A stretch of DNA of 45,164 nucleotides, taken from Clostridiales bacterium. Its GTDB lineage: Bacteria; Bacillota; Clostridia; Oscillospirales; Oscillospiraceae. The stretch is from the NCBI GenBank assembly GCA_014799475.1, contig JAAVHX010000002.1, positions 1 to 45,164 of the forward strand, written 5' to 3'. The position numbers and the translations under genes are program-made. The notes beneath the pieces were generated by a model, which searched no databases, was not told where the DNA came from, and worked only from the letters and a program-made list of their open reading frames with translations. Positions 5,254-39,231 of the stretch are shown here, in pieces (positions within the stretch are counted from its first letter, which is position 1; the number at the start of each line of letters is the position of its first letter).

Positions 5254-5255
5254 CG

Positions 5256-6316: not shown

Positions 6317-6345
6317 TTGTCAGCTTTCGGGGATACTGGTATACT
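6317..6345 (+). promoter_or_regulatory. promoter of thioredoxin-reductase-like gene
   Basis: TTGTCA (6317-6322), 17-bp spacer, TATACT (6340-6345). It is divergent from the asparaginase promoter, with 5 bp between the -35 boxes. Confidence 0.7.
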
Positions 6346-6375
6346 ATAAAGAAAAGAATGAGGAGGATGATCCTG

Positions 6376-25070: not shown

Positions 25071-25112
25071 AGCGGTATCGAAGTGGTCATAACGGGGCTG
25101 ACTCGAAATCAA
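25071..25112 (+). pseudogene. decayed 5' part of a second tRNA-Ser
   Basis: This stretch matches 25148-25189 of the intact tRNA-Ser almost base for base, including the D-arm, GGTATCGAAGTGG and the CGA anticodon loop. The anticodon stem has mismatches, and the variable arm, T-arm and acceptor 3' half are missing. The offset from the intact copy is 77 bp, as in a tandem tRNA pair or a remnant of an older insertion. Confidence 0.7.
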
Positions 25113-25145
25113 ATAATCTATCCGGGAAACTGAATATTCATGCAC

Positions 25146-25234
25146 GGAGCGGTATCGAAGTGGTTGTAACGAGCTTGACTCGAAATCAAGTTGTCCGCAA
25201 GGGCACGTGGGTTCGAATCCCACCCGCTCCGCCA
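25146..25234 (+). tRNA. tRNA-Ser (CGA)
   Basis: The acceptor stem GGAGCGG/CCGCTCC, D-arm, anticodon stem CTTGA/TCAAG with loop CTCGAAA, long variable arm (TTGTCCGCAAGGGCAC), T-loop GTTCGAATC and an encoded CCA are all present. It decodes UCG. Its 3' end is followed by a terminator and the integrase, which marks it as the probable attachment site of the next element. Confidence 0.95.
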
Positions 25235-25235
25235 G

Positions 25236-25274
25236 AGACCCCTTGAAAACACTGAGTTTCAAGGGGTCTCCTTT
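25236..25274 (+). terminator. terminator of tRNA-Ser
   Basis: GAGACCCCTTGAAA / TTTCAAGGGGTCTC stem, loop ACACTGAG, then CTTTT. Confidence 0.85.
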
Positions 25275-25312
25275 TGGGCTGGGAGCCAATTTATGAAATC
25301 AAAAAATGAGAA

Positions 25313-25415
25313 ATGGTGCCCATGGTGCCGGGGTTTGTGGTGCCCAGCCAGATTCGGCAGATGAATATAAATGCGGATTCTGAGCGCCGTGGTGCCTAAA
25401 TGGTGCCCGGCACCA
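25313..25415. repeat. cluster of TGGTGCC motifs, candidate integrase arm sites
   Basis: TGGTGCC occurs at 25314, 25323, 25338, 25390 and 25401, and inverted (GGCACCA) at 25409-25415. The pair at 25390-25407 (11-bp spacing) is repeated with one mismatch at 35425-35442. Confidence 0.6.
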
Positions 25416-25488
25416 CAAATGAACCTATGGAAACGAGCGGGGAATTGTGAACGCTGGTCTGCTGAATAAGCTCTGCAAAGGGGCTGCG

Positions 25489-25562
25489 CAGCACTGCGGT
25501 GCTGCGGCACCTCGCGTTCATAAACTTCTACCTGCGGTAGAAGTTTATGAACGCGAGGTTTT
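25489..25562 (+). terminator. double hairpin downstream of integrase
   Basis: CAGCACtgcgGTGCTG (about 25489-25504), then a 23-bp perfect stem (25510-25532 with 25536-25558) and TTTT. The T-run favours + strand transcripts, although the integrase ends here on the minus strand. The 25235-25569 stretch has no gene. Confidence 0.6.
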
Positions 25563-25569
25563 GGGGCTT

Positions 25570-26798
25570 TCATCCCACATCCAGCACAGCCCGATGGTAT
25601 GTATCTAACACCACCAGCTTGCGCTCCAGGCGTACGTCCACGTACTGGGCGGTAACAGCTTCCAGATTGGTGGACAGATTGAGCTGGATACCGATTCCTT
25701 TCAGACTGTGGCCCAAAATTTGCCCCACCGTGTAGAAGTCCCCGGTGAGCTGGTGCATATTAGTCGCTGCGCTGTGACGGGTATCGTGAAACCGCATATG
25801 GGGCATACCCAAGTGACGGAGCAGCTGCCCGAACTCGGTGGATATATGCTGTGTCCGGTCTGGGATGCCGTTAGGCTTGGCGACCACCAAGTCATTGTCA
25901 TAGTATATCTGCCCAGCTGCTGCCATCAGACGCTTCTGTTCCTCCTGCTGTGCGCGGTGCCGCTCAAAATAAGGGCGGGTGCTTTCCGTGATAGGCAGGA
26001 CGCGCTCACTGGACTTCACAGGAGCCATCTCCGCAACCTCAGTAGTCCCAGACGGGAGCCGGAAGGGCGCAGCTGTTCAACCACTGCAAAACTGCCGCCC
26101 TCCAAGTCTACATTCCGCCAGCGGAGGCCAAGAATCTCGCCTGCCCTCAGCCCGTATAAGCCGCCCAGGACGATGATAAGCTCCCACCAAGTCCCCATGA
26201 CATTGGCAAGCAGGCTCCGCATTTGCTCCACGGTGTAGGGGTCCGGGGTCTTGCCCTGTTTTCCGAACTTGGTGATCGTGTCCCTGGCGGGGTTGCTGTC
26301 GATGTAGTGATATTTCCGGGCGTGCTCCAAGGCAACGCCCATGATACGGTGGGCATATTTTACCGAAGATTGGGATAGACCCTTTTCGGAAAGCTGGCGG
26401 TACATATCATCCAGCATGGACGGGGACAGCTGGCCCAGGAATACGTCACCGATGCAGGGGAAGATGTGGTTCTTCATGTGGCTCTGATAGCTGGCCCTGG
26501 TGCTGGGCCTGAGATTTGCTGAACCATGACGATCCAGCCAGTCCGTCATGTACTCTTGGACAGTCTGTTTGCGCTGGGCCGCTCTCGGCGGGGAGTAGAA
26601 AGGGCTTGCCAGCTTCAGCTTCATTTCCGCTTCGTGCTGCTGGGCCTCACGTTTTGAGGGGAATCCCTTGCGGGAATAGGTCTTAGGCTGGCCATCGGAC
26701 TTGTACTTGATGTTTACATCGTACACAGTCCCTGCCCTTCCGGTCAGTTCACCGGAGGAGTTGCGCTTGTTCTTCACAGTTCGTTCTTGAATTGCCAT
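25570..26798 (-). pseudogene. tyrosine-recombinase integrase, broken by a frameshift
   Basis: The reading frame starts at ATG 26798 (AGGAGGTAAGACA upstream). It runs through an arm-binding domain (TYSRKGFPSKREAQQHEAEMK), a SAM-like core-binding domain (QTVQEYMTDWLDRHG) and the first catalytic block GLYGLRAGEILGLRW with the catalytic Arg. It then leaves frame near 26066-26070. The second half continues in another frame (26028-25570) with HDTRHSAATNM (His-x-x-Arg), LGHSLKGIGIQL and EAVTAQYVDVRLERK (catalytic Tyr). Removing two bases, or adding one, at the CTGCGCCC tract restores one protein of about 409 aa. It is adjacent to the tRNA-Ser 3' end, the usual site for such enzymes. Either a decayed gene or a sequence error. 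Confidence 0.85.
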
Positions 26799-26822
26799 TG
26801 TCTTACCTCCTCTTTGCTTCGG

Positions 26823-26866
26823 GTGAGGCCCTGTATATCCTGCAAGCAAGATATACAGGGCCTCAC
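26823..26866. repeat. 17-bp perfect inverted repeat between xis-like gene and integrase
   Basis: GTGAGGCCCTGTATATC (26823-26839) pairs with 26850-26866 around a 10-nt loop. It lies in the leader of the integrase mRNA; no T-run follows on the minus strand. Confidence 0.7.
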
Positions 26867-26897
26867 TGGTTGACATTCCTCTGGCTGTCAGGTAGAA

Positions 26898-27098
26898 TTA
26901 CACTACAGGAACTTTCTCCCGCTGGTAGTAATCCCACAGGGCTTGCATGGTCGTCAGCCTCCGGTTGCCATTTTGCAGGTACTCAATCTTCCCCTCGGCC
27001 ATCAAACGGCGGATCAGGTTGACACCAAGGCCGCTTACTTTGCTGGCCTGCTCCGGTGTTAAGAACAGCGGACGAATCGCTTCGGCTGATTTTCTCAT
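26898..27098 (-). CDS. excisionase-like small HTH protein, 66 aa
   Basis: LFLTPEQASKVSGLGVNLIRRLMAEGKIEYLQNGNRRLTTMQALWDYY is a MerR/Xis-type helix-turn-helix (HTH_17): the position next to the integrase and the size match excisionases that bend DNA during element excision. AAGGAG (within ATGAAGGAGCTG) lies nine bases before ATG 27098. The ORF extends upstream to 27503 only because it overlaps the primase gene in another frame. Confidence 0.75.
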   Translation of the reverse strand: MRKSAEAIRPLFLTPEQASKVSGLGVNLIRRLMAEGKIEYLQNGNRRLTTMQALWDYYQREKVPVV

Positions 27099-27174
27099 GT
27101 ACAACAGCTCCTTCATGATAATGATATGTGTTCCAATTTGCTGGAACGGCTGAAAGCCTTGTGGCTCAATGAAT

Positions 27175-28794
27175 TCATGTCCACTGTTCCAAAGTTCCAT
27201 AGTTGGAAGTTCCCTTCTTAAGCGCGATTCCCATATGGCCTTGGCGGTTTTCGGTTCCAATCCGAACGCGCTTGGCATAGACACCCGGAACCCCTGAAAG
27301 CAAATCATAGAGCACCTGCTTTGAAGCTGCCTCCAGACCATTCCGCTTGCAGTAGGTAACGTAGGCGTCATACAGATCCGTATTAAAGACACGGACCGCA
27401 GGATCGAGGTCGCAGCATTCGGCCAAGAACCCACCGAGGACATTTCCACGCAGTGTGAAAGAATCCAGGAACTTCTTGGAATCCTCCGGCTGGGTGAACT
27501 CAAAGTTGCGCTTTATCGGCCGCTGCACTGCCTGGAGCGCCAACGTCACGATGGAATCCCGCTCGCTCCACAGCTCGTCAGCAAGTCGCTTGTCCTGCTT
27601 TTCTGGCGGGATGCTGTTATTGAATAGCAGCACGCGAATACGATTGACGAATGTAGCGGTTGCATCCGTTTCCGTTGTGAGCGGCAGGGTGTTTCCTGAG
27701 AACAGCAGCTTGCAGCGAGGGGTAAAGTAGAATGGGTCACGTCCCTTAAACTCGCCAGCAATGCGGTCATTTCCGGTGATGGACTTGAAGATTGATATGT
27801 CCCTCAACGCACGGCCCGCAAGCTCACCGGCGACGTTGAGCTTCTTACCAGCTAACTCCGCTCGGAAGAAACGATCTGCCAGTTGATGCAGAGGGATATT
27901 GGACACCAGTTCCTTGTCGAATAAGCGAGCGGCGAACGAGGAAACGACACTCTTACCGCTGTTGGGCTGACCCTTGAAGAATAGGGCGCATTTCCCAGCG
28001 CTTGTGTCGGTGCAGATATACCCCAAGACCTCCAGTAGAAGCTCCCGTTTTGCGGCATTGCCATCCAGAGAGGTCTTGCAGAACCGCTCAAACGCAGGGC
28101 AGGAGATTTCGGAAGGTTCCTCCAAGTATGAGGCATGAACCTGATAGGTGAAGCGATAGCTTGGGTCGTGATCCAGCAATTCGGAGGTTTCCAAATTGAA
28201 CACCCCGTTTTGCAAGTTCACCAATTTGGGGTTACTGTTATAGCTATCCAGATTACACTGAATAGAAGTCTCCCACGATAGCCGTTCCGCAATTTCACGG
28301 ATATTGCGAGAGAGAAGGCTGCGCGTGGTTTTAACTGGGAGCATATTTGCCAGATATGCTTCAAAATTGGTGACAGGCTTGTAGTACCCGCCATCTTCTT
28401 GATAGGCAAACGCTCCCCCAGCTTCGGTTAGGAGCAATTTACCCTCCGCAACGATCCGGTCCACTAAGTCAGACAGAAAACGGGCCTGTACACTGGGAGT
28501 TTTCTCCGGAGCTGGAGATTGCGTAGCTGGAGCAGGAGGCTCGGATACGGTTGTTGAATCAGAGCGAGACGGAAATCCTGTATCTTCATCCTCATCCAAT
28601 TCCGAGATCAAATCATAAAGCTCGTCAGCTTTTGACAGCTTGGCCATTATAGGCGATTCGTACTTCGTGGAGACCTCGCTTTCATCAGAATACCCACCAT
28701 CATAGGGGCCGAATGGGGTGTTGACCATACGTTTAATCAATCCTTTCCATATTTGATGCTGATTGATGTTAAAGGAATTCCTTACGATGGCCAT
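27175..28794 (-). CDS. P4-type phage/plasmid primase-helicase
   Basis: A 539-aa protein with a low-complexity, Ser/Pro-rich N-terminal part (about 60-100), a D5_N-like region (LVNLQNGVFNLETSELLDHDPSYRFTY, split around 190-215) and an SF3-type ATPase with Walker A GQPNSGKS (275-282) and LLFSGNTLPL (about 363-372, sensor). Such proteins start replication of P4-like satellites and integrative elements. No separate primase domain is clear, so this may be the helicase half. The start is uncertain: ATG 28794 has no good ribosome site, and the in-frame ATG at 28728 has AAAGGA 12 nt upstream. It is divergent from the next unknown gene. Confidence 0.83.
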   Translation of the reverse strand: MAIVRNSFNINQHQIWKGLIKRMVNTPFGPYDGGYSDESEVSTKYESPIMAKLSKADELYDLISELDEDEDTGFPSRSDSTTVSEPPAPATQSPAPEKTPSVQARFLSDLVDRIVAEGKLLLTEAGGAFAYQEDGGYYKPVTNFEAYLANMLPVKTTRSLLSRNIREIAERLSWETSIQCNLDSYNSNPKLVNLQNGVFNLETSELLDHDPSYRFTYQVHASYLEEPSEISCPAFERFCKTSLDGNAAKRELLLEVLGYICTDTSAGKCALFFKGQPNSGKSVVSSFAARLFDKELVSNIPLHQLADRFFRAELAGKKLNVAGELAGRALRDISIFKSITGNDRIAGEFKGRDPFYFTPRCKLLFSGNTLPLTTETDATATFVNRIRVLLFNNSIPPEKQDKRLADELWSERDSIVTLALQAVQRPIKRNFEFTQPEDSKKFLDSFTLRGNVLGGFLAECCDLDPAVRVFNTDLYDAYVTYCKRNGLEAASKQVLYDLLSGVPGVYAKRVRIGTENRQGHMGIALKKGTSNYGTLEQWT

Positions 28795-28895
28795 TATCTC
28801 ATATTTGCGAGAAATTACTATACTCGCAGATGTGGTTATTCTGACAAGCTTCTATTGGCACATAGGTGGTAAATTTTATCTTGGAGGGAATTGCT

Positions 28896-29906
28896 GTGGA
28901 TAAGGAGCGGGCGGCATTAGATTCTATTTCTAACTGCATAGCGGCAAGGCTAAGGGGACAGGTCCAATACAGCTCAAAGAATGTAGCGGAGAAGCGACGT
29001 AGAGAAGTACCCGTCATTTCACCGCAAGTTCAAAATTTCTGGGACAGCTGTATTTGCACCTTTGAGGAAAGAATAATCGCTCCCTTTGATGGGCAGAACC
29101 TCAAACTGCGGAAAGGAACAAAGGGGTGCGGAAAAGCTACTTTTGCCCAGGATTCCCCTGCGGAAGATGACGCTGGTCATTCTCACTTTACAGAACCCAT
29201 ATATTCACATATTACGGCATCTGAACAGGCAGTACGCGAATCGAGCCTTGAATTGGTTCAAAAGGAGGATATCATCAAGCTACTTAACGAATTGCGTACC
29301 AAACTGGAAAAGTATGAGGAACGTAATATTCGCAAGCAAGAACTCAACGGCTTCATATTAGGTACGGTTAATCTTGAACGTCTTCCATATATGCTCAATT
29401 TGCAGGATAAGTCTGTATGTGAACTTTTGCCATATCTATTGACTGCTTTCATATTCAACTCCTGGCGCAACCGATCCTTTGCCAAAGAAATGAGGCTGGT
29501 CCTACTAATTTGTGGCGAGGATATAACCTCTCGGGATACAGACCCTCTGGATTCTATTACAATCAGTCGCATGATACCTAAAGCGAAGAAACTTGCTCAA
29601 GTATTCAGCCTAAAGCAAATGTTAGATTCCAAAAATAAGAGAGCCGCATTACTACACCTTGACCCAGGCACGAGGAATGATAGACGTCCAGTGCCTTGGT
29701 ACGCAGCATTCTATCAAATGGATCCACAGAGCATAGAAAGCCCATATATCAAATATAAGGAAATGCTGGATCATGTCTATGACAGTTGGTGCAGTGCGAT
29801 CCAGGAATGTGCACCGTTGGCAGGAATAGAGGCGTTCCCATTGGATATTGACTGGGATGCTTGCCAGAAACTCTATTCCTCTTATACTACGGCATCCAGA
29901 AATTAA
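28896..29906 (+). CDS. hypothetical element-borne protein, 336 aa
   Basis: I do not recognise the family. It is soluble with a charged helical middle (EDIIKLLNELRTKLEKYEERNIRKQE, in two parts about 125-150) followed by a hydrophobic patch (LLPYLLTAFIFNSW). The start is GTG 28896 with TTGGAGGG seven bases upstream; the frame continues up to 28866 without a ribosome site. Lower GC than the core genes. It lies between the primase and an HTH gene, ending at the 23-bp hairpin. Confidence 0.65.
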   Translation: MDKERAALDSISNCIAARLRGQVQYSSKNVAEKRRREVPVISPQVQNFWDSCICTFEERIIAPFDGQNLKLRKGTKGCGKATFAQDSPAEDDAGHSHFTEPIYSHITASEQAVRESSLELVQKEDIIKLLNELRTKLEKYEERNIRKQELNGFILGTVNLERLPYMLNLQDKSVCELLPYLLTAFIFNSWRNRSFAKEMRLVLLICGEDITSRDTDPLDSITISRMIPKAKKLAQVFSLKQMLDSKNKRAALLHLDPGTRNDRRPVPWYAAFYQMDPQSIESPYIKYKEMLDHVYDSWCSAIQECAPLAGIEAFPLDIDWDACQKLYSSYTTASRN

Positions 29907-29951
29907 ATTGGCTGGCAAAGGGGGTGACTCACCCCCTTTGCCAGCCAATTT
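29905..29951. terminator. 23-bp perfect palindrome between convergent genes
   Basis: 29905-29927 pairs exactly with 29929-29951 around one base. It contains the stop of the + gene and the last codons (ITGWQRG-type end) and stop of the minus-strand HTH gene. No clear T-run, so it may end transcription by its stem alone or have another role. Confidence 0.6.
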
Positions 29952-30159
29952 GGCTTATAAGGAATTCATCAATCGCTGCATTCGAAATCCGCCAGCAGTG
30001 TCCTACGCGAACCCCATGCAGCTCCCCCGAGTTCAGCAGCCGGTATATGGTATTCCTCCCCACTCCCAAAATGTCCATGGCCTCAGCTGGGGTAAATACG
30101 ATGGGAAGCTGTTCCTCCTTGCGCTGCTCCAGATTTTCAATGAATGCTTCATTTCTCAT
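29929..30159 (-). CDS. excisionase-family HTH protein, 76 aa
   Basis: LPIVFTPAEAMDILGVGRNTIYRLLNSGELHGVRVGHCWRISNAAIDEFL is an HTH_17/MerR-like DNA-binding domain (about 18-67). It may be a second excisionase or a regulator of the divergent amidoligase cassette. AGGAGGG lies eight bases before ATG 30159. Its last codons lie within a perfect palindrome. Confidence 0.8.
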   Translation of the reverse strand: MRNEAFIENLEQRKEEQLPIVFTPAEAMDILGVGRNTIYRLLNSGELHGVRVGHCWRISNAAIDEFLISQIGWQRG

Positions 30160-30234
30160 GATAAAATCCCTCCTATGGATTATTTAACACCTTGTTGGTC
30201 CTTCCTGTACTTTTCAAACATATATCATTTCAAT

Positions 30235-30287
30235 AGAACACCGGAAACTGCCGATGGTTTTAACCTGGACACAGTTTCCGGTGTTCT
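30235..30287 (+). promoter_or_regulatory. 16-bp stem with 21-nt loop in leader of amidoligase cassette
   Basis: AGAACACCGGAAACTG (30235-30250) pairs with 30272-30287. It lies between the divergent HTH gene and the first micro-ORF. It may be a terminator for upstream transcription or a leader structure; the T-run is poor. Confidence 0.5.
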
Positions 30288-30318
30288 GTCATTCTGAAGA
30301 AAGTGAGGAGGAACTATC

Positions 30319-30405
30319 ATGCTGAAAACGCTGCTGCTGGTCATCCGTGGAATTATTCTGGAGCTTGTCGATCTGCTGCTCCAGGAGGTTTGCAGCCTGG
30401 GGTGA
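30319..30405 (+). CDS. micro-ORF 1, 28-aa hydrophobic peptide
   Basis: A short ORF with a clear ribosome site (GAGGAGGAAC, about 30305-30314). The peptide is hydrophobic with a few charges (MLKTLLLVIRGIILELVDLL then LQEVCSLG) and looks like an amphipathic or membrane helix. Its TGA (30403-30405) overlaps the ATG of the next micro-ORF by one base. Reality is supported by the chain of coupled starts and stops; function unknown. It could be a substrate of the amidoligase (inference). Confidence 0.6.
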   Translation: MLKTLLLVIRGIILELVDLLLQEVCSLG

Positions 30406-30518
30406 TGATGGACGGGAGAAAGGCCATTCAGGACAAGGCCCTGAGTGTCCTTGTTGCTGCTGTGGCCGCGCTGCTCTGTGCGGTCATTGACCATTTGACG
30501 AAGGAGGAACATCCATGA
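30405..30518 (+). CDS. micro-ORF 2, 37-aa membrane peptide
   Basis: Polar ends surround a hydrophobic helix (ALSVLVAAVAALLCAVI, about residues 12-28). It begins at an ATG overlapping micro-ORF 1 (TGATG), with a second in-frame ATG at 30408. Its stop overlaps the amidoligase ATG as ATGA, and the amidoligase ribosome site (AAGGAGGAAC) lies in its last codons. So it is translationally coupled on both sides. Function unknown. Confidence 0.6.
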   Translation: MMDGRKAIQDKALSVLVAAVAALLCAVIDHLTKEEHP

Positions 30519-31633
30519 CCGAAGAAACCTTTACCTGCTCCTGCTGCGGGCATACCTACCCCATGCACGAGCGCACCATCTTTGAGGACGAGGAAATCTG
30601 CCCCCACTGTCTGGATACGGAAACCCGCGTGTGCCAGGTCTGCGGGGAGCGTATCTGGCGGGACGATAACGCCGGGGACGAGGACACTCCCCTGTGTGAG
30701 CGCTGCTATGAGCGGCACTATACCAGCTGTACCCGCTGCGGTGCGCTGCTCCCGCTGGACAGCGCTTACTACCTCAGTGACGATGCTGCGGATGACGATG
30801 ATCCGCTGTGCCATGACTGCTATCTGCTGCGGAGCGCGGACAGGGAAATCCACAATTACTACTACAAGCCTGACCCCATCTTCTATGGGGATGGGGAGCG
30901 CTATTTCGGTGTAGAGCTGGAGATTGACGGGGCCGGGGAACGGAATGACCGGGCCTGCCAGCTGCTGGACATTGCCAACAGGAGCGGCCATGAGCACATC
31001 TATATCAAGCACGATGGCTCCTTGGATGACGGCATGGAGATCGTGACCCATCCCATGACCTTGGCCTATCACATAGCCGAAATGCCCTGGGGTGACGTGG
31101 TGGCCGAGGCTCTGCGCATGGGCTACATCAGCCACAAAGCCTGCACCTGCGGCCTCCATGTCCACGTCAACCGGGACGCCTTTGGTGACACTGACGCAGA
31201 GCAGGAGGAGGTGATTGCCCGAATCCTGTTCTTCGTAGAAAGCCACTGGAACGAGCTGCTGCGGTTCAGCCGACGCTCCCGTTCTCAGATGGAGCAGTGG
31301 GCGGCGCGGTATGGCCGGAAGGACGATCCCAAGGCTGTTCTGGATAACGCCAAGAAGGAGCATTATCAGCGGTATAAGTGTGTGAACCTCACCAATTACA
31401 GTACCATTGAGTTCCGAATGTTCCGGGGAACGCTGAAACTGAACACCCTTCTTGCCACATTGCAGATGGTTGACCGCATCTGTGATGTGGCGCTTTATTT
31501 GACGGATGGGGAAATGCAGGACTTGACCTGGACGGACTTTGCGGCGGGCTGTACTGCCCCGGAGCTGGTGCAATACCTCAAAGAACGGCGGCTGTATGTC
31601 AGTGATCCTGTGACTGCCGCCGAGGAGGTGTGA
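30515..31633 (+). CDS. zinc-ribbon amidoligase (GS-fold amidoligase family)
   Basis: 372 aa. The first ~105 residues carry repeated CxxC pairs (CSCC, CPHC, CQVC, CERC, CTRC, CHDC), giving several zinc-binding knuckles. The rest is the amidoligase (Amidoligase_2) domain: YFGVELEIDG (about 130-139, metal-binding Glu134/Glu136), KHDGSLDDGMEIVTHPMT (about 166-183), CTCGLHVHVNRDAF (about 210-223) and NLTNYSTIEFRMFRGTL (about 291-307). The family shares the glutamine-synthetase fold and is expected to make amide bonds with ATP. The class II amidotransferase begins two bases after the stop, which suggests ammonia from glutamine or a shared amide-bond route. The zinc part may bind the target. Product unknown. 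Confidence 0.88.
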   Translation: MTEETFTCSCCGHTYPMHERTIFEDEEICPHCLDTETRVCQVCGERIWRDDNAGDEDTPLCERCYERHYTSCTRCGALLPLDSAYYLSDDAADDDDPLCHDCYLLRSADREIHNYYYKPDPIFYGDGERYFGVELEIDGAGERNDRACQLLDIANRSGHEHIYIKHDGSLDDGMEIVTHPMTLAYHIAEMPWGDVVAEALRMGYISHKACTCGLHVHVNRDAFGDTDAEQEEVIARILFFVESHWNELLRFSRRSRSQMEQWAARYGRKDDPKAVLDNAKKEHYQRYKCVNLTNYSTIEFRMFRGTLKLNTLLATLQMVDRICDVALYLTDGEMQDLTWTDFAAGCTAPELVQYLKERRLYVSDPVTAAEEV

Positions 31634-31635
31634 CC

Positions 31636-32598
31636 ATGTGCGCCATCTTCGGAGTGCTGGACTTTCGGGGGAAGCTCACCCCGGCCCAGCGGCGGGCAAT
31701 CTTACGGGAGTTAGCTAACGCGGCGCAAATTCGGGGCACCGATGCCAGCGGTGTGGCCTATGTGCGGGACGGGGCCATACAGATCCAGAAAGCCCCCAGG
31801 CCCGCCAGCAAAATGCGTTGGCGGATTCACCCGGAGGCCCGGTATCTTATGGGCCACACCCGTATGACCACCCAGGGGGCCGCCTCCAAAAATTACAATA
31901 ACCACCCATTTCCCGGCAGAGCTGGCAGTCAGCCCTTTGCCCTGGCCCATAACGGTGTGCTGTACAACGATATGGAGCTTCGGCGTACCCAGCGCCTGCC
32001 TGCCACCAAAATTGAGACGGATAGCTATGTGGCGGTGCAGCTGATTGAGAAATGCGGCAGACTGTCTGCCGACAGCCTATGTCAAATGGCCGAGGCTATG
32101 GACGGCACGTTCACCATCACAGTGCTGGACGCAAATGATACGCTGTACTTGGTGAAGGGCAACAACCCGTTGGTGATCCGGCTGTTCCCCGGTCTGGGCT
32201 GCTATCTCTATGCGTCCACAGGCGAGATTTTAGACATTGCTCTGGACGGTCTGGGGTGGTCCCAGCAGGCCCAGACTGGTATTCCCATCACTCGGGGAGA
32301 CATTATGGCGATTGATGCCCAGGGCCGACGCACCATCACCCAGTTTGACGATGTCCGTCTGCGGACACCGGAGTATTTCTGCGGCTGGGGGTGGCCGTGC
32401 CGGACTGCGCCTGATGAACCGGATGACTACCTGGAAACGGTGCTGGACTACGGAAAGCACCACGGTGTGCCAGAGTGGGAGCTTCAGCTTCTGCTGGATG
32501 CCGGGTACGACGCGTTTGACATTGAACAACTCATTTTCGACAATCCGTTCCGGGAGAGCTGTGTCCGTGAGATCATGGCGGACTTTGGGGTGCGCTGA
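31636..32598 (+). CDS. class II glutamine amidotransferase
   Basis: 320 aa starting MCAIFGVLDF, so that Cys2 becomes the N-terminal nucleophile of an Ntn glutaminase. The upstream GTG at 31630 would bury this Cys, which decides the ATG 31636 start (GAGGAGGTG five bases before). RGTDASGVAYV (about 33-43), HTRMTTQGAASKNYNNHPF (about 73-91) and ALAHNGVLYND (about 99-109) are class II GATase blocks. No synthetase domain is attached; the amidoligase gene just upstream is the likely partner. About 90 C-terminal residues (DDYLETVLDYGKHHGVPEWE) are not part of the GATase core. Confidence 0.92.
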   Translation: MCAIFGVLDFRGKLTPAQRRAILRELANAAQIRGTDASGVAYVRDGAIQIQKAPRPASKMRWRIHPEARYLMGHTRMTTQGAASKNYNNHPFPGRAGSQPFALAHNGVLYNDMELRRTQRLPATKIETDSYVAVQLIEKCGRLSADSLCQMAEAMDGTFTITVLDANDTLYLVKGNNPLVIRLFPGLGCYLYASTGEILDIALDGLGWSQQAQTGIPITRGDIMAIDAQGRRTITQFDDVRLRTPEYFCGWGWPCRTAPDEPDDYLETVLDYGKHHGVPEWELQLLLDAGYDAFDIEQLIFDNPFRESCVREIMADFGVR

Positions 32599-32721
32599 GA
32601 TGTGCCAATACTATCATCAACGATACTGATTGCTGATGGGAAGCAGGGTTAAACATATCCTATGTTACGGAAACTCGCAATGAGTAACTCAACACTATTC
32701 GAATGGAGGAATCTATCCTAT

Positions 32722-32892
32722 ATGGGACTTCTTGCCTTAATTTTGACTGCTGTACTGATGTATCTGTACCACAAGCTTTTCACGGTTGTCTATGTAAATG
32801 CGCTCGCTGGTATTCTACGAGAGATCGTAGTCTGCTTCGTCCTGTCAGTAGTGATTCTTGGAATGGTATCTCACGTACTCGGAATCGGATAG
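32722..32892 (+). CDS. small two-helix membrane protein, 56 aa (76 aa if the upstream ATG is used)
   Basis: Two membrane segments: LLALILTAVLMYLY and EIVVCFVLSVVILGMVSHVL. The start at 32722 has GGAGG 12 nt upstream; the in-frame ATGs at 32680 and 32662 have no ribosome site. It lies between the amidotransferase and the membrane-ATPase fusion. No family recognised; it might be a partner of the fusion protein's membrane part. Confidence 0.5.
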   Translation: MGLLALILTAVLMYLYHKLFTVVYVNALAGILREIVVCFVLSVVILGMVSHVLGIG

Positions 32893-32947
32893 AAGCCAGT
32901 GGATGGGAAATCGTATACTTATAAGGCATAACGAGGAGGAAATGTGA

Positions 32948-35413
32948 ATGGGAGCATTTCTTGTATTGGCTGCTGCCGCATTCTTGATTTACGCAATGGT
33001 CATTGAGCCAAGACGCATTGGCTCAATCATTGAAACCCGCGTGTTCGCAGGAGATCTGTTGTCTGGCCAATTCAGCTATCAAGAAATTGCCGAACTGCTA
33101 CAGGCAGCGACATGGATCAGGGACAAGAAGGAAGTCAAGCTGAGTGATCCCGGTGAAGATGACCACTCCGGCCTGATCGAAATGGTCTGCAAAGGTGTTA
33201 CCTATCAGGTGCGCATTGCCTCCTATGGGGAGAACTCGTCAAAGCTGACAGTTTCGGCGGTCTTCAAATCTGAATCCTGGGACATTGAAAGGGTTCGCCG
33301 TCTACAGGAAGCGAACCGGATTCGGTGCCGCATCATGGAACGGGCGAACCCCGGTTTCACGGAGCAGCCCCAGAAATACTATGGTGCAATCAAGACACTG
33401 TGTCTTCTCCAGTATTGCGCAATCGCGCTGATTGCGGCGTTCCTTTGCTATATAGCGGTGCCCCAGATTCTGACCTGGATCTTGGGTGCTGACGTGGTTC
33501 AGGGAATCCACGTTTTGGGTATGATGGTCGTGGTGATCCTGTTTATCTATTCCGGCGTTGCGCTGTCTCCCTATATCATACACACCAGGTCTGAAAAGCT
33601 TCTGGACGGTGTTCCGGTACCGCAGTATTGGAGCAATGACGATCTTATGGAGCTGCTGCGGGATAAGTTGCGTATCAGGACAATGCAAAGTCTCTATTTT
33701 GATGAAACCGGAAGCGTAGCGATCAAGGGGAAACACGCTGCTTATGTGGTCAGGGTTTCCGCCGAGTGTCCCAGGCTGTCTATTGAAATTCGGGACAGCA
33801 ATGAGGCGGCAGCGTATCAGGAGGCCGATTATATCCAGTGCTCTATCGCAAAGCTGTTTAATTCTACCCACCCGGAGAATCCTGAAAAGATGTATCAAAC
33901 GCTGGCTATGATTCGCAGAAGCAGCCTGATGGCGGGAATTTCGGTAGTGGCATTTATTGCGCTTCTTGCCGCGCCGTTCCTGCTTAACCACTTTGGCTCC
34001 AGGGGAATCGCAAATTCCTATTTGACGCAGTATAGCGAAACGGTGACAGTCGGTGAGGCATTTGAGGCGTTCTTCGGCGATCCCAAATGGGAGAGTTATA
34101 AAGCCGGAGCTCAAGAATATGTGGATTTCACCGGGAAATGTACTTACATGGGTGAAAATGCTACAATGAGGATCACATTTGCCGTCTTTGATGATACGTT
34201 TAAGACATTCAAATGCGTCCTGCTCACTGGTGCGCGGCAGACCGGGAAATCCACCATGCTGAAACAGCTCTTTCCCTCCTACAAGTACGTGCCCCTGGAT
34301 GACCCATTCGTGGAGGATCAGGCAAGAGAAAATCCCGATATGTTCCTGATGCTCAACCCGCCCCCGGTGTTCCTGGACGAGGTTCAGCGCACCCCCGGCC
34401 TGTTCCGCTATCTCAAGATGAAGTGCGACGAGAGCGACGAGCGGGGACGGTTCCTACTGTCCGGCTCCCAGCCGCTGGAACTGATGGAGAATGCGTCTGA
34501 ATCCCTGTCCGGACGGGTGTGCATCGTGGAGCTGTCCGGGCTGTCCCTGCGGGAAATTTCCGGGGATGCGTTCAGCGAACCCTTTGTGCCCACCATGGAG
34601 TACATCACCCAACGGAATCAGACGGCCAAGGTCCCCGACAACATCTGGGAGATCATCCATCGCGGCGGATACCCGGAGCTGCAAAACCGGGATGTGGAGT
34701 GGTCGGCGTTCTTTTCCAGCTACGTGAAGACCTATCTTGAACGGGACGTGCGAAAGCTGTCAGCCGTCCAGGATCTGGACGATTTCCGCCGCTTCATGGT
34801 GGCGGTGGCGGCACGCACTGGGCAGATGCTGAACTACTCCAACATTGCCGATGAGATCAGCAAGGACGCCAACACTGTGAAGCGGTGGCTGTCGCTACTG
34901 GAAGCCACCGGCATCGTATACCTACTGGAGCCCTACACGCCCTCGGTGCTGAAACGGGCCATCAAAACACCCAAGGTCTACTTCCGGGATACCGGGCTGG
35001 CCTCCTACCTGACCCGCTGGCTCACGCCGGACACCCTGGCCAACGGCGCTATGAGCGGGGCCATGTTTGAGACATTCGTAATCTCGGAGATCCTGAAATC
35101 CTACTCCAACCGGGGGATCGACTACCGCTATTGCGTATCCTACTATCGTGGGAAAGATAAGAAGAAAGCCCGGGTTGATGGTGCGGAGGTCAATGTTGAG
35201 AGCGAGGTGGACTTGATTATTGAGGAGAACGGCATTCTCCATCCCATTGAGATCAAGAAAAGCGCCAAGGTCACGGCAGATCAGACCGCCGCGTTCACCG
35301 TATTGGATCAGGTGCCTGATAAGAAGCGCGGGGACGGGGCCCTGATCTGTCTATGCCCACAGCCCGGAAAGCTGCGGGAGAACGTGTTCCAAATCCCTGT
35401 ATGGTTCATCTGA
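32948..35413 (+). CDS. in-frame fusion of a membrane protein and an AAA_14/DUF4143 ATPase, 821 aa
   Basis: Residues 1-~417 form a membrane protein: anchors at about 3-20, 142-165, 175-197 and 325-350, two similar soluble repeats (SYQEIAELLQAATW.. and WSNDDLMELLRDKLRI..) and a C-terminal region TVGEAFEAFFGDPKWESY typical of a small Firmicutes domain. From about residue 420 an AAA_14 ATPase follows: Walker A GARQTGKS (428-435), Walker B VFLDEVQ (about 474), LLSGSQPLE, then DUF4143 with EVDLIIEENGILHPIEIKKS (about 756-775), a nuclease-like D-E-K pattern. The usual first ~20 residues of AAA_14 proteins are missing at the join. GC rises sharply at the junction near 34200. AGGAGG precedes ATG 32948. 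Either a new chimera or a remnant that happens to remain in frame. Confidence 0.85.
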   Translation: MGAFLVLAAAAFLIYAMVIEPRRIGSIIETRVFAGDLLSGQFSYQEIAELLQAATWIRDKKEVKLSDPGEDDHSGLIEMVCKGVTYQVRIASYGENSSKLTVSAVFKSESWDIERVRRLQEANRIRCRIMERANPGFTEQPQKYYGAIKTLCLLQYCAIALIAAFLCYIAVPQILTWILGADVVQGIHVLGMMVVVILFIYSGVALSPYIIHTRSEKLLDGVPVPQYWSNDDLMELLRDKLRIRTMQSLYFDETGSVAIKGKHAAYVVRVSAECPRLSIEIRDSNEAAAYQEADYIQCSIAKLFNSTHPENPEKMYQTLAMIRRSSLMAGISVVAFIALLAAPFLLNHFGSRGIANSYLTQYSETVTVGEAFEAFFGDPKWESYKAGAQEYVDFTGKCTYMGENATMRITFAVFDDTFKTFKCVLLTGARQTGKSTMLKQLFPSYKYVPLDDPFVEDQARENPDMFLMLNPPPVFLDEVQRTPGLFRYLKMKCDESDERGRFLLSGSQPLELMENASESLSGRVCIVELSGLSLREISGDAFSEPFVPTMEYITQRNQTAKVPDNIWEIIHRGGYPELQNRDVEWSAFFSSYVKTYLERDVRKLSAVQDLDDFRRFMVAVAARTGQMLNYSNIADEISKDANTVKRWLSLLEATGIVYLLEPYTPSVLKRAIKTPKVYFRDTGLASYLTRWLTPDTLANGAMSGAMFETFVISEILKSYSNRGIDYRYCVSYYRGKDKKKARVDGAEVNVESEVDLIIEENGILHPIEIKKSAKVTADQTAAFTVLDQVPDKKRGDGALICLCPQPGKLRENVFQIPVWFI

Positions 35414-35421
35414 TTTAGGGA

Positions 35422-36003
35422 TCATGGTGCCCAAATGGTGCCTGCGGCCATCCGACGCAGCATAACGACTAAAATCCCCAGGTGTGAGGAAATGTAAGTT
35501 TCTCCACCCTGGGGATTATATTCGATCAGGAAAAGTGACGCTATATTATGATGGATGGCTTCCACACTGTTGAATCCATCCGCATACAGCTTGTGATCGG
35601 CGGCACCCCGCCTATAGTCGTCCTCGTAGCCGAGTGCCTCGGCCTGGGCTGCGGTAAGGATTCGGGCTTCCACTCGGCCCTCGTTCAAATACTTCTGTTC
35701 AAGATAGTAATTGTATTCCATTATGGCTCTTATAGCCCGCAAAGGTGCTAGGGCGCAAGTTTGCCTTACTATTCCCCATGAAGCAGCGGTGAGTACATTT
35801 TCATCAAGGACAATCTCCATAATATTGCCGATCTGAGAATTCAAAGCCACACAGATATGAAGGAGGTCATCTGTCGTAACATTCTGGCCTTTCCCAAGTT
35901 TGGCCATTGAAGCAGAACTGACTTTACCGATTTCCTTCAGCTTCTGCTTATTTATCTTCTTATCAATTGACAGTTTCCATAATTTGTAATAGCTGAAATG
36001 AAT
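35422..36003 (-). CDS. Cro/C1-type HTH protein, probably started at ATT
   Basis: The HTH covers about residues 10-65: KLWKLSIDKKINKQKLKEIG, then KVSSASMAKLGKGQNVTTDD. Homologous proteins begin a few residues before YYKLWK, but here no ATG, GTG or TTG stands in that place. ATT (36003-36001) lies eight bases after GGAGG (36016-36012) and directly after the stop of the ATPase gene, so it is the best candidate start, giving 193 aa. The first ATG (35907) would cut the HTH in half. About 100 C-terminal residues (HKLYADGFNSVEAIHHNIAS..) have no known role. It may control the ABC-3C operon, of which it is the last gene. Confidence 0.65.
   Translation of the reverse strand: MHFSYYKLWKLSIDKKINKQKLKEIGKVSSASMAKLGKGQNVTTDDLLHICVALNSQIGNIMEIVLDENVLTAASWGIVRQTCALAPLRAIRAIMEYNYYLEQKYLNEGRVEARILTAAQAEALGYEDDYRRGAADHKLYADGFNSVEAIHHNIASLFLIEYNPQGGETYISSHLGILVVMLRRMAAGTIWAP
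35425..35442. repeat. right-hand copy of the 18-bp TGGTGCC pair
   Basis: TGGTGCCCAAATGGTGCC differs at one position from 25390-25407. It lies just after the ATPase fusion gene and overlaps the end of the HTH gene. Possible integrase arm site marking the right end of the first element. Confidence 0.6.
35471..35521. repeat. inverted repeat at the end of the HTH gene
   Basis: AATCCCCAGGTG and CACCCTGGGGATT form a 12-bp stem with one bulge around 26 nt. It lies inside the coding end of the HTH gene; it could be a terminator that the gene now reads through. Confidence 0.45.
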
Positions 36004-37695
36004 TTAATTATCCTCCAAATCTGTCTCTGCCGACTCAGGTAACGCTTTTATTTCCGGTGTTTCTTCGTTCCATGCTCTGCCGAACAGCTCATGTCCCGAC
36101 GAAATATTCAATCTGGTGGTTTCCTTTATTATTTCGGGAATCTTGTTCTCATCTGTGTAGGATTCGCCTTTGTCTACCGCTACAAAAAACTGTTTGCTAC
36201 TCTGCCTGTATAATTCCAGAATCCTCAGCATCACCGGATCTTCGACCTGTTTCACGCTTATGGAATCCTGTACTACAGCAGGAAGCAGCGTTTTTTCAGC
36301 AGTCACCAAATCGAACAGGAACATGCCTCTGGTTTGAGAACCGGTACCGACATCATTCGGTGTCGTAAAAATATATTTCTTGGCATTGCTAATTGCAATG
36401 GACGGAGCCGTCTTTCTGCCGCTACAGACGATGCTGTTCAGTTCCCGGAGTCGGATATTGATGTCCGTCTGAAGTTCCGCTGTCAATTCTTCAATCATAC
36501 TGTCGAGTCGCGCCTGTAGCTCCTCGCGTGTGGTCTGCAGCTCATCCTTTTTGACGTAATACTCGTTGGCGTCCCGCAGGTTTTTCATCTCGCGATCAAT
36601 CCCGGAGTAGCTATCCAGTAATGCTTGTGTTAAATGCGGTGTGGCATTCACTTCAGAAACTTCCCGCTCCAGAACAGAGATTTGGACATCAAGCAATTCC
36701 ATCGTATCTTCAATTTTCCGCTGACTATCCTTATATTCTGAATTCAGGACGGATTTCAGCTTTCGATGAAAAGCCTCGATCTCTTCAACATGTTTTATGG
36801 CTGCATCCGGGAAAAACTCCCGCAGTTCACTATAATCCCGCTTAAAACTGGACTCGTCTATCTCCATATCCGCTTTCATGGCGGTGAGTTGGGAACGTAG
36901 CCGCGTTTTTTGCCTGCGTAAGTTAGCAAGCTGGCGTTTCAAATCAGATAGCCTTGCCGCCTGAACGGAATCCATATCCAGAAGATCTTGTGTGCTGCCA
37001 CGCGCAAGTTCTTCTTTTTTTGCCTGAAGCTCGGCAATCCGGGCTTCATTCTTTTTATAATCTTCCTGCCTTGTAACACCGCGAATGTAATGAAACTTAT
37101 ATGCATTTTTATATGTTTTCTCTTTTGACTCAGCCTCTTCAACCAGCGCTGCAAGATCGCCTACAGGTGCATACTTTCCATAAAGCTGGAGCATACGCCG
37201 AATACCGGCCTCCATCGTGTCATTCTGATGCGCTTTCAGCGGGTGCCTTTCATCATAGTTATATCGGCCATAAATCCTGAAGAAGCCGCTGACCAGTTCC
37301 CGAAAGCCGGCTCCGAGATTCTGCATTCCATACTGAAGTGACAAGAAGTTACAGTAGGTATCCAACGTGATTTCTTTGACGGACTCATACTTTTCATTGC
37401 ATTCCATCACTTTCGTATGGTCGCCGGTCGACCGGGAGAAGTAATACGTATTCTCCCCAAACTGAAAGGCGAACTTGATTTCATGGATGCCGATGTTCCG
37501 CTCTACGTCGTTGTTCAGCGTTACATAGTCTTTACCACCGAAAACAAAATCGATAATCATCAAAAAGGTGGATTTTCCGATAGAGTTTGAGGCTCTGGAC
37601 GCGCCAAGAATCGTGTTCAGACCTTTCTCAAATGTGATCGGAGGACGCACTTTGCCGCTGTCCATAAATTTGTCGCAGCGGATTTCAATCAACAT
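36004..37695 (-). CDS. DUF2326 SMC/RecN-like ATPase of a predicted ABC three-component system
   Basis: 563 aa. An ABC-type ATPase head with Walker A GASRASNSIGKST (31-43) is followed by a long coiled coil (about 205-410; EARIAELQAKKEELARG, LSDLKRQLANLRRQKTRLR) and a C-terminal head half with DUF2326 features (GMFLFDLVTAEKTLLPAVVQDS, about 462-484). In ABC-3C conflict systems such an ATPase works with a small middle component and a CTD-containing effector, which are encoded here just upstream. The ATG (37695) overlaps the middle component's stop. Expected to sense invading DNA or proteins; this is family-level inference. Confidence 0.8.
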   Translation of the reverse strand: MLIEIRCDKFMDSGKVRPPITFEKGLNTILGASRASNSIGKSTFLMIIDFVFGGKDYVTLNNDVERNIGIHEIKFAFQFGENTYYFSRSTGDHTKVMECNEKYESVKEITLDTYCNFLSLQYGMQNLGAGFRELVSGFFRIYGRYNYDERHPLKAHQNDTMEAGIRRMLQLYGKYAPVGDLAALVEEAESKEKTYKNAYKFHYIRGVTRQEDYKKNEARIAELQAKKEELARGSTQDLLDMDSVQAARLSDLKRQLANLRRQKTRLRSQLTAMKADMEIDESSFKRDYSELREFFPDAAIKHVEEIEAFHRKLKSVLNSEYKDSQRKIEDTMELLDVQISVLEREVSEVNATPHLTQALLDSYSGIDREMKNLRDANEYYVKKDELQTTREELQARLDSMIEELTAELQTDINIRLRELNSIVCSGRKTAPSIAISNAKKYIFTTPNDVGTGSQTRGMFLFDLVTAEKTLLPAVVQDSISVKQVEDPVMLRILELYRQSSKQFFVAVDKGESYTDENKIPEIIKETTRLNISSGHELFGRAWNEETPEIKALPESAETDLEDN

Positions 37696-37913
37696 AATGC
37701 AGCACCCCCAAATGTTCTATCAGTTCTATCTTTCCCAACGCGTACAGACAATCAAGTATATCCATATACTCGCCGATATCTTCAACCTTGGATTTTTAGC
37801 TTCTTGTATAGCGAAGCCGGAGACATATCCTGTTCCTTGAGACAGGAGAGAATGACCGGAAACTTTGATATGGTGCTTTCTTTGTATGTGATCACTTTAT
37901 TCGGGAGTTTCAT
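37685..37913 (-). pseudogene. ABC-3C middle component, 1-nt frameshift
   Basis: From ATG 37913 the frame reads MKLPNKVITYKESTISKFPV and continues to LYKKLKI, then meets a stop. With one base removed at 37790-37791 (ATCCAAG to ATCAAG) it continues VEDIGEYMDILDCLYALGKI and ends at 37685, overlapping the ATPase start. The corrected product of about 75 aa has the size and pattern of a middle component linking ATPase and effector. It also overlaps the effector's end by 17 bp. As written it is broken. Confidence 0.7.
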
Positions 37914-39086
37914 TGAACACCTCACAATTCTGTACAAAGAAAGAAATCATTGCCTCCAGCGCATCCCGATTGTGGCAGTCAGTCTGGTCTTCCAACCACT
38001 TCACCAGTCGTTCGAAGATTTCTCTCTGTGGCATATTAGCTTCATCAAAGGTCTCAAAGCACTGACTGACTTCATTCTGTACCTTCTTAAAACGAAGCAG
38101 AGACGTCCTTTCACCCTGCTTAAACTGCATTTCGATGTATCTGTAGTACCGGAGCACCCAATATGTGACTCTATCTTGCAACAAGCCATTGTCATCAGGG
38201 ATTTTCTTATCTACCCGAAAAGCTTCCCACTTAGTACGATCTATCGGTTTAGGCGGTTTTTTTATATCTGCTATGGCATCGAGAATTTGACGGATGCCTT
38301 TTTCTACAGCAATGTCATCCACCTTGTCCTGCAGCGATATATCGTCCCGCTGCTGCTTTTTGATCATAAGAAGCCTGCGATACTCAGTAGCAGACGGTGC
38401 AACAAGGTATTCCCCGGCGCAATCTCTGCAAAGAAGGATTTTATTATCCAACAAATCCAGATCATTTGGTGGCGGTGCCACAGCCTTAAAGGAGTTTTGC
38501 TGAATAAGATCTAGCCATGCGGGAACAGGGGAACAACCTCATACTTCTTAAGTGGGTGCCCCTTTACTGTTTTGACGAGCTTATCTCTGCAGAGAGGGCA
38601 ACGCATATTACACTCCTGAAGGAGCGGAAAGTCTTCGTGTTTTACAGGTTCATTTTTATCGATATTCTGGGCTGCAAGTGCAGCCTTTTTCTTTTTTGCA
38701 GAAATTCTCTTTTTAGCAAAGCTGAAGATGATGTTCCGGAAAAGATATGCTGTCTCTTCTGGAATGTTCGCACGGTTCATGTGCGGACAGTGATCCTTTA
38801 GCTGCTGGTAAATCAATTCTTGTGCATCGCTGCCAATACTATTGATATAACTCACGAAGAGCTCTGCGTCTACATAACTCGTAATCTTTGGCGCAAAGCG
38901 AGTCAACTGGCGATCACCCGTGAAGTACGCCTTAAATGTCGGATCGCCGGGATCATCTATCGGATTCGGATCTACATCGTCCGGGATATCTGTAATTTTC
39001 TTGAAGAGTTCTCTTGTAAAGCGGGCAGGATTTGATCCTTTCGCAAGAATGCCCCATAAAGTATTTGCAAACTCGCTAAACTCCAA
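37897..39086 (-). pseudogene. ABC-3C effector/CTD protein with HNH-like zinc motif, 1-nt frameshift
   Basis: The first frame (39086-38511) encodes EFSEFANTLWGILAKGSNPA.. and ends LFPHG-stop just after the first zinc pair (CPLC). The second (38513-37897 region) resumes as AWLDLIQQNSFKAVAPPPND with the second pair LLCRDCAGEYL. One extra C at the TTCCCGCATGG tract (38519-38523 on +) would join both into about 397 aa with CxxC...LFP...N...CxxC, an HNH-like zinc fold. I take TTG 39086 as the start because AAGGAGGG lies eight bases away; the frame is open to 39149. Broken as written, or a sequence error. Confidence 0.72.
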
Positions 39087-39107
39087 AACATAGCCCTCCT
39101 TTACAAA

Positions 39108-39137
39108 ACGTATCTCAACGTATCCCGACGTATCCAA
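39108..39137 (-). promoter_or_regulatory. three 10-bp direct repeats upstream of ABC-3C operon
   Basis: ACGTATCTCA, ACGTATCCCG and ACGTATCCAA stand in line on the + strand (39108-39137). On the coding strand this is (G/A)GATACGT three times, one helical turn apart, immediately before the ribosome site. It looks like an operator, perhaps for the HTH protein of the same operon. Confidence 0.65.
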
Positions 39138-39231
39138 TCGTTCGATCACTTTTTTTCAAAGCAACTATACTATGCCTCGGACAGTCGGGAATTCCTTTTA
39201 ACCACGAATAATTAAAAGGTGCAATTAGATT

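What the first reader, a model, noticed from the sequence alone, without database searches (positions are those of the whole stretch)
30319..35413. Coupled micro-ORF / amidoligase / glutaminase cassette on a mobile element
Two tiny ORFs (28 and 37 aa), a zinc-ribbon GS-fold amidoligase and a class II amidotransferase with N-terminal Cys2 follow each other with overlaps of 1 and 4 bp and a 2-bp gap, and then come a small membrane protein and a membrane-ATPase fusion. Overlapping starts and stops show that the micro-ORFs are translated as part of the set. Established: amidoligases form amide bonds and class II GATases release ammonia from glutamine. Inference: the cassette amidates or cross-links a small peptide, the micro-ORF products, the envelope or a phage component. 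The six CxxC pairs before the ligase domain may hold the target. I know of no described function for this exact arrangement.
Basis: partly seen in the sequence, partly recalled or inferred. Interest (0 to 1): 0.85.

Follow-up and report, generated by a model that had tools for sequence, protein, structure and literature searches.

The report
Micropeptide-headed amidating-enzyme operon on integrative element
A small mobile DNA element of a gut bacterium carries a phage-type pair of enzymes, probably for adding ammonia to an acid group, behind two tiny conserved membrane-type peptides; the peptides turn out to belong to the element rather than to the enzymes, so they are probably not what the enzymes act on.

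Summary
In detail: 28- and 37-aa ORFs, an amidoligase and a class II glutamine amidotransferase (GATase) run head to tail with the stated overlaps. Both micro-ORFs are under protein-level selection and recur upstream of related amidoligases. In 400 family genomes, strong micro-ORF-2 matches lie at 16 places: 10 head amidoligase-GATase, 5 head DUF932-YqaJ operons (one with an amidoligase remnant), 1 has neither directly behind it. The peptides thus head an element's cargo operon in which the enzyme pair is exchangeable, and are unlikely to be its substrate. The pair is already described in phages: a GATase lies within 2.5 kb downstream in 28 of 29 family loci and 70 of 80 viral loci fetched by amidoligase. 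Models give a glutamine-synthetase/YbdK fold and an Ntn glutaminase, so ammonia-dependent amidation is the likely chemistry; envelope peptides are the best guess for the substrate. The 'membrane-ATPase fusion' is two genes in the closest relative; the window lacks about 805 bp between them. The element spans about 25231-35553, beside tRNA-Ser. New here: the coupled micropeptide pair, its odd start codons, and a covarying leader hairpin in one subtype.

The parts
25231..35553 (.). integrative element, about 10.3 kb; left end at the 3' end of tRNA-Ser, right end inferred
   Evidence: homology to L001/L249 begins at 25231 and ends at 35553, in four blocks (28748-29816 and 32611-32929 do not match); chromosome-side homology in L250 ends at 25234
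25146..25234 (+). tRNA-Ser (cga), likely integration site
   Evidence: ARAGORN; homology break at its 3' end
25570..26876 (-). tyrosine integrase region, open only as two overlapping ORFs (26016-26876 and 25570-26028)
   Evidence: the homologous L001 gene is one 408-aa integrase
26898..27098 (-). excisionase-like protein, 66 aa (in-frame tail of the longer ORF 26898-27503)
   Evidence: ORF list, start counted by me; same family in 9 of 57 loci; HTH_17 and weak Tn916-Xis match for the L238 counterpart
27175..28794 (-). D5-type primase-helicase
   Evidence: DUF5906 2.6e-16, D5_N 6.9e-11; P4-family primase C-terminus 2.8e-47
28866..29906 (+). 346-aa protein of unknown function
   Evidence: no Pfam match above its cut-off
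29929..30159 (-). HTH_17 excisionase/AlpA-like regulator, divergent from the operon
   Evidence: HTH_17 8.2e-15; same family in 24 of 57 loci, 1-2 genes upstream on the other strand in 19
30233..30289 (+). leader hairpin just upstream of micro-ORF 1
   Evidence: 15 of 20 pairs with compensatory change in 11 chosen sequences, 0 of 500 shuffles as high; RNA fold z -4.8
30319..30405 (+). micro-ORF 1 (m1), 28 aa, hydrophobic
30405..30518 (+). micro-ORF 2 (m2), 37 aa (38 if GTG 30402 is the start), Ala-rich TM-like helix
30515..31633 (+). amidoligase with six CxxC pairs and a GS-fold domain
31636..32598 (+). class II glutamine amidotransferase, Cys2
   Evidence: GATase_6 4.7e-14; Cys2, RGxDA, GHTR, HNG, TDS invariant in 17 sequences; fold of PurF/GlmS glutaminase domains
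32722..32892 (+). small membrane-type protein, 56 aa (ORF opens at 32662)
   Evidence: tblastn to L004, L007, L023, L228
32948..35413 (+). 821-aa ORF: membrane-protein-like N-part joined to AAA_14/DUF4143; two genes in L001

Best explanation
The window carries a roughly 10-kb integrative element (integrase, excisionase, D5 primase, HTH_17 regulator) inserted at a tRNA-Ser. Its right-hand operon starts with two coupled membrane-type micropeptides, m1 and m2, which belong to this element family. Behind them sits an exchangeable cargo. Here the cargo is a two-enzyme amidation unit: the GATase releases ammonia from glutamine, and the GS-fold amidoligase uses ATP to join it (or another amine) to a carboxylate. 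The most likely target is a peptide or glycopeptide of the host envelope, altered to keep competing phages or elements out, as proposed for related phage modules. Shown here: gene order, conservation, selection on m1 and m2, exchangeability of the cargo, predicted folds, conserved catalytic-type residues. Inferred: joint action of the two enzymes, ammonia as the amine, the envelope target, the exclusion role, and membrane location of m1 and m2.
Against: No substrate evidence of any kind was found. GGCT, ATP-grasp and COOH-NH2 ligase partners of the published cell-wall module are not among the window proteins scanned and no GGCT-like motif ORF lies within 5 kb. Some amidoligases lack a detected GATase neighbour (10 of 69 distant viral loci, some at contig ends; 2 of 5 annotated records), so ammonia may not be the only amine. 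Superinfection exclusion by this pair has no experimental support in what I read. The attachment sites are not fully resolved: no tRNA repeat was found at the right end in the window, and the left flank of the element in L001 holds no tRNA.
Confidence: 0.6

Rival explanations
1. m1 and/or m2 are the substrates: the pair amidates or cross-links the micropeptides, as in a ribosomally made modified-peptide pathway.
For: Immediate neighbourhood and coupled frames; m1 and m2 conserved as proteins; 10 of 16 strong m2 places stand before amidoligase-GATase.
Against: At 6 of 16 strong m2 places no intact amidoligase follows, and 47 of 57 amidoligase places in the same genomes have no strong m2 match beside them. 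C-termini vary; the invariant Asp of m2 persists without the enzyme. The pair is widespread in viral contigs without a detected m1-m2.
Confidence: 0.07
2. m1 and m2 are membrane anchors or adaptors that place the cargo enzymes at the membrane, where an envelope substrate is amidated.
For: m2 has an Ala-rich hydrophobic helix and m1 is hydrophobic; unrelated small hydrophobic ORFs stand directly before amidoligase in L035, L040 and L042.
Against: The same m1-m2 stand before DUF932 and YqaJ genes in 5 loci, and a YqaJ exonuclease needs no membrane (established knowledge). m1 amphipathicity is not unusual against shuffles: 120-228 of 2000 at least as high for the four m1 tested.
Confidence: 0.12
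3. m1-m2 are an element-maintenance or exclusion module (small-toxin-like or holin-like peptides) under leader control, independent of the cargo.
For: They track the element, not the cargo; strong leader hairpin in one subtype; weak or odd m2 start codons in some loci suggest tight dosage.
Against: No toxicity data; no known family match; no antisense RNA looked for; the hairpin is missing from 9 of 21 m1-m2 leaders folded; some m2 have an ordinary ATG start.
Confidence: 0.35
4. The amidoligase-GATase pair modifies a soluble metabolite or a protein (host or phage), for instance as counter-defence, and not the envelope.
For: Families of this fold act on soluble substrates (glutamine synthetase, GmaS, glutamate-cysteine ligase; fold matches) and on proteins (Dop); the invariant zinc-ribbon-like Cys array suggests binding of a macromolecule (inference).
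Against: Published genomic context of related phage modules points to peptidoglycan (passages), although that too is a prediction.
Confidence: 0.25

Closest known systems
Phage amidoligase + class II GATase pairs (mycobacteriophage Marvin gp105/gp106; OM43 phages MEP401/402; LUZ24-like UFV-P2)
   Same: Homologous amidoligase with a class II GATase: next gene in Marvin, one HNH gene between them in UFV-P2 (passage), both genes reported in MEP401/402 (passage; order not seen).
   Different: Here the pair lies on a small integrative element without recognised structural genes, behind m1-m2.
Phage 'peptidoglycan modification' cassette (PSA-HP1/RIO-1, phiEco32, 7-11, PaP3, LUZ24, tf)
   Same: Shares amidoligase and glutamine amidotransferase (passage in PMC5498523); PMC11945000 lists amidoligase with GGCT, ATP-grasp, an aminohydrolase and a COOH-NH2 ligase (passage).
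   Different: No GGCT, ATP-grasp or COOH-NH2 ligase match among the window proteins scanned.
YbdK / glutamine synthetase / GmaS / glutamate-cysteine ligase fold
   Different: 8-14% identity; adds the N-terminal array of six CxxC pairs; substrate unknown.
MurT-GatD peptidoglycan amidation
   Same: Same division of labour, separate glutaminase and ATP-dependent ligase (PMC3267633 and PMC5871853, starts of abstracts in listings).
   Different: MurT is Mur-ligase-like (abstract) and GatD is a class I GATase (recalled); these enzymes are GS-fold and class II, so analogous at most.

Membership tests
Amidoligase_2 (PF12224) | score above the curated cut-off | tested here: met
   38.4 bits against 22
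Amidoligase_2 (PF12224) | GS/GCS2-type fold with acidic and His metal-site motifs | tested here: met
Class II glutamine amidotransferase | N-terminal catalytic Cys and glutamine-site motifs | tested here: met
   M1-C2, RGxDA, GHTR, HNG, TDS invariant in 17 sequences; GATase_6 53 bits against 27
Phage peptidoglycan modification module | amidoligase plus GATase | tested here: met
Phage peptidoglycan modification module | GGCT, ATP-grasp, COOH-NH2 ligase | tested here: not met
   no such Pfam match among the window proteins scanned; no GGCT-like motif ORF within 5 kb
Phage peptidoglycan modification module | altered peptidoglycan, superinfection exclusion | not testable with these tools
   needs experiment
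RiPP precursor with modifying enzyme | precursor found with the enzyme and not without it | tested here: not met
   no intact amidoligase behind m1-m2 at 6 of 16 strong m2 places
RiPP precursor with modifying enzyme | conserved core site specific to enzyme-bearing loci | tested here: not met
   C-termini vary; the m2 Asp is kept without the enzyme
Type I toxin or holin-like peptide | toxic membrane peptide with antisense RNA or lysis role | not tested
   only size, hydrophobicity and leader hairpin seen
Phage satellite (PICI-like) or mobilizable element | integrase, regulator, primase, no structural genes | tested here: met
   genes of 25231-35553; no structural gene recognised among those scanned
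Phage satellite (PICI-like) or mobilizable element | helper-phage packaging or conjugative mobilization | not testable with these tools
   no packaging or relaxase gene recognised among the element proteins scanned

The most novel reading that the evidence does not exclude
m1 and m2 are a new family of paired membrane micropeptides that heads the cargo operon of a family of small integrative elements. m2 is made by termination-reinitiation at an NTG overlapping a stop codon, including CTG behind a three-codon ORF (ATG-ATA-AAC-TGA), and one subtype has a dedicated leader hairpin. The pair acts for the element itself (exclusion or maintenance) while cargo such as the amidating pair or a DUF932-YqaJ recombination set is swapped behind it.
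Probability: 0.35. Interest if true: 0.6.

Novelty: new variant of a known kind. Interest (0 to 1): 0.45.

Why it matters
A minimal two-gene version on a small element is a convenient system to find it. Showing that the adjacent micropeptides belong to the element prevents a wrong substrate assignment, and exposes a conserved coupled micropeptide pair that gene callers easily miss because of its size and start codons.

Tried and rejected
Micro-ORFs as chance ORFs: rejected by selection in frame and by profile recurrence. Micro-ORFs as enzyme substrate: disfavoured. Programmed frameshift fusing m1 to m2: m2 lies in different frames relative to m1 in different loci (f2 in the window, f1 in L002, same frame in L067 and L229), so no common frameshift. 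Gln-responsive leader peptide: no run of Gln codons in m1. Known RNA family for the hairpin: only chance-level microRNA models far below their cut-offs. GGCT partner: one convincing neighbour, L056 (read), among 4 motif matches. A viral scan with the m2 profile gave 93 pattern matches, none confirmed; the single-sequence amidoligase viral scan gave 6 pattern matches, none confirmed. The amidoligase profile against PDB sequences gave weak matches to LIM, CTCF zinc-finger and NADH-pyrophosphatase chains over the Cys array and none over the ligase domain. PADLOC gave no match for the pair. Repeat of the tRNA 3' end elsewhere in the window: none of 14 bases or more except within 25071-25257.

Bias told: loci L001-L056 were fetched by GATase, so GATase presence there is by construction; adjacency is therefore quoted from sets fetched by amidoligase, and the GATase profile used was grown on these same loci. 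Of the 49 genome loci fetched by GATase, 10 show no amidoligase: 8 begin within about 1 kb of a contig end, but L045 and L049 have room upstream and none (L049 is only a 28% relative). The m1/m2 profiles were built from 10 loci that also appear in the counts, where duplicates of the window or of one another remain (for example L062 and L066). m1 was found by profile at 13 places (E 1e-4 or better); in L231 and L232 m1 was read by eye only, and in L239 only m2 passed. The 57 amidoligase places include contig-end fragments. Most of the 11 rows of the hairpin alignment were taken because a hairpin was visible, so the covariation counts describe that subtype only; 9 of 21 leaders lack it. The 57 loci may hold near-duplicates.
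Full report
WHAT IS THERE. m1 is MLKTLLLVIRGIILELVDLLLQEVCSLG with an AGGAGG Shine-Dalgarno sequence; m2 is MMDGRKAIQDKALSVLVAAVAALLCAVIDHLTKEEHP. The amidoligase passes Pfam PF12224 (38.4 bits, cut-off 22) and matches PHROG 16683 at 3.4e-92; the GATase passes GATase_6 (53 bits, cut-off 27). m1 matches no Pfam, NCBIfam or PHROG family at E 1; m2 has one chance-level match, E 0.29.

MICRO-ORFS. Closely related loci carry m1 and m2 in the same order upstream of the amidoligase: 23 of 172 amidoligase ORFs have both (one more has m2 alone), counting the 10 seed loci and some duplicates. Pooled pN/pS is 0.34 (m1, 6 pairs) and 0.31 (m2, 4 pairs), against 0.59 and 1.44, and 1.39 and 1.19, in the other frames. 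One m1 pair (L002/L071) has few changes and a ratio of 0.57, and in one shifted frame that same pair gives 0.21, so single pairs are noisy. Of 400 family genomes, 40 have the amidoligase (57 places, fragments included). m2 at E 1e-6 or better lies at 16 places in 14 genomes. Ten stand before amidoligase-GATase (in one, G237, with DUF3846 between). Six do not. L228 (G029) has only a remnant of the amidoligase Cys array and then DUF932, YqaJ and a 255-aa-type protein; L229 and L230 (G305, two copies), L231 (G180) and L232 (G154) have DUF932, YqaJ and the 255-aa-type protein; in L233 (G307) none of these follows m1-m2, and an amidoligase-GATase pair lies about 5.3 kb away in the opposite direction. 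DUF932 and YqaJ were confirmed by Pfam in L232 and by tblastn in the other four; the 255-aa protein has no Pfam match, and 'RecT-like' is my recalled label. On a tree of 78 amidoligases the m1-m2 label (19 rows) needs 6 changes, at least 5 forced by well supported branches; it is clustered (shuffled mean 17.2, 0 of 500 as low) but not one clade. The micropeptides therefore follow the element, and the cargo behind them changes.

HOW m2 IS STARTED. In the window, L001, L003, L004, L019, L021, L023, L025, L029, L068 and L233 the m1 stop TGA overlaps a GTG in the m2 frame (GGGGTGA); in L228 it overlaps an ATG. In L002, L013, L076 and L238 the m2 frame has no ATG, GTG or TTG near its start but a CTG that overlaps the stop of a three-codon ORF (ATG-ATR-AAC-TGA); in L067 the same arrangement has TTG. 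L229-L232 use ordinary ATG. L007, L052 and L074 have no clear start at this point. Termination-reinitiation is the simplest reading for the overlapping cases; it is inference, and metagenome assembly errors could explain single loci.

LEADER HAIRPIN. Between an ATAT(C/T)ATT box and m1 lies an 18-24 bp hairpin whose sequence differs but whose pairing is kept: 91.8% of cells paired, 15 of 20 pairs with changes on both sides in 11 sequences, 0 of 500 shuffles as high, slid controls far lower. Most of the 11 rows were chosen because a hairpin was visible. Of 21 m1-m2 leaders folded, L002, L013, L229, L230, L232, L235, L236, L237 and L238 do not show this stem, and L231 shows a different one. The consensus promoter scan found nothing, and only about 29 nt separate hairpin and m1 start, so the hairpin probably lies in the mRNA leader (inference).

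ELEMENT. Compared with L001 (same contig as L249 by length and alignment), homology runs from window 25231, the tRNA-Ser 3' end, to 35553 in four blocks; 28748-29816 (the 346-aa gene) and 32611-32929 (the small membrane ORF) do not match. In L250 the chromosomal side stops at 25234. L001 has a partial tRNA 3' end about 28 bp beyond its right end, but no tRNA at its left end, and the window shows no tRNA repeat at 35553; the right end is therefore inferred. Gene order is integrase, excisionase, D5 primase, 346-aa protein, HTH_17 regulator, then divergently m1, m2, cargo. In 57 loci longer than 8 kb: GATase family 56 (54 at the next position), resolvase 29, HTH_17 24, D5 primase 21, XRE regulator 20, integrase 18, DUF960 13. 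Mobility type (satellite or mobilizable element) is open.

THE 'FUSION'. L001 has a 612-aa protein with hydrophobic segments and a separate 422-aa AAA_14/DUF4143 protein; window 34202/34203 joins the two regions with about 805 bp missing. The fusion is therefore recent or an assembly effect and should not be read as a functional partner.

PRIOR WORK. Passages read: PMC10580990 (both genes in OM43 phages; cites Iyer 2009 for phiEco32 cell-wall modification and Mageeney 2012 for Marvin), PMC3890496 (UFV-P2), PMC5498523 and PMC11945000 (peptidoglycan modification cassette), PMC11318856 (C. clostridioforme prophages), PMC3485107 (Tn6164: amidoligase next to AIG2/GGCT), PMC3517423 (phage tf). PMC7824862 only cites Iyer 2009, and the passage of PMC5705681 concerns another protein. 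Iyer 2009 and the Marvin paper are not held and were not read. The listings of searches (titles and starts of abstracts) name neither the m1-m2 pair nor an experiment on this enzyme pair; that is all I claim about print. The small-protein catalogues listed were not opened and may contain m1 or m2.

VERDICT. A real, conserved arrangement: a known enzyme pair in a new setting behind a micropeptide pair that I found no description of. Envelope amidation for exclusion is the best guess; the substrate is unknown.

Noticed in passing
window 30233-30289: Long leader hairpin with strong covariation in one subtype of these elements, directly before micro-ORF 1.
   Followed up: yes
window 34202-34203: Apparent deletion of about 805 bp relative to L001 that joins a membrane-protein-like gene to an AAA_14/DUF4143 gene.
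   Followed up: partly
window 25570-26876: Integrase open only as two overlapping ORFs in different frames; the related L001 integrase is one 408-aa ORF.
   Followed up: partly
window 36004-39149: ABC-three-component-like defence genes just right of the element: DUF2326/LmuB-like ATPase, CTD11 protein, and a 212-aa protein without a Pfam match.
   Followed up: partly
window 40703-42598: HD-domain protein with weak dGTPase similarity.
   Followed up: no
window 1946-2487: 226-bp tandem repeat, 2.4 copies, 99% matches, at the 3' end of ORF 1020-2033 (looks like aspartate-ammonia ligase, recalled), repeating its C-terminal coding end.
   Followed up: partly
window 29907-29949: 20-pair stem palindrome between the 346-aa gene and the HTH_17 gene, terminator-like.
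   Followed up: no
L058 (Marvin) 4992-6353: Marvin gp105 is labelled 'glutamine amidotransferase domain protein' but matches the amidoligase profile; gp106 is the GATase.
   Followed up: partly
L228 10418-10735: A 105-aa ORF holding only the CxxC array of the amidoligase, before DUF932: a remnant or a stand-alone zinc-ribbon protein.
   Followed up: partly
   Followed up: no
L043: Two amidoligase-GATase pairs in tandem on one contig.
   Followed up: no
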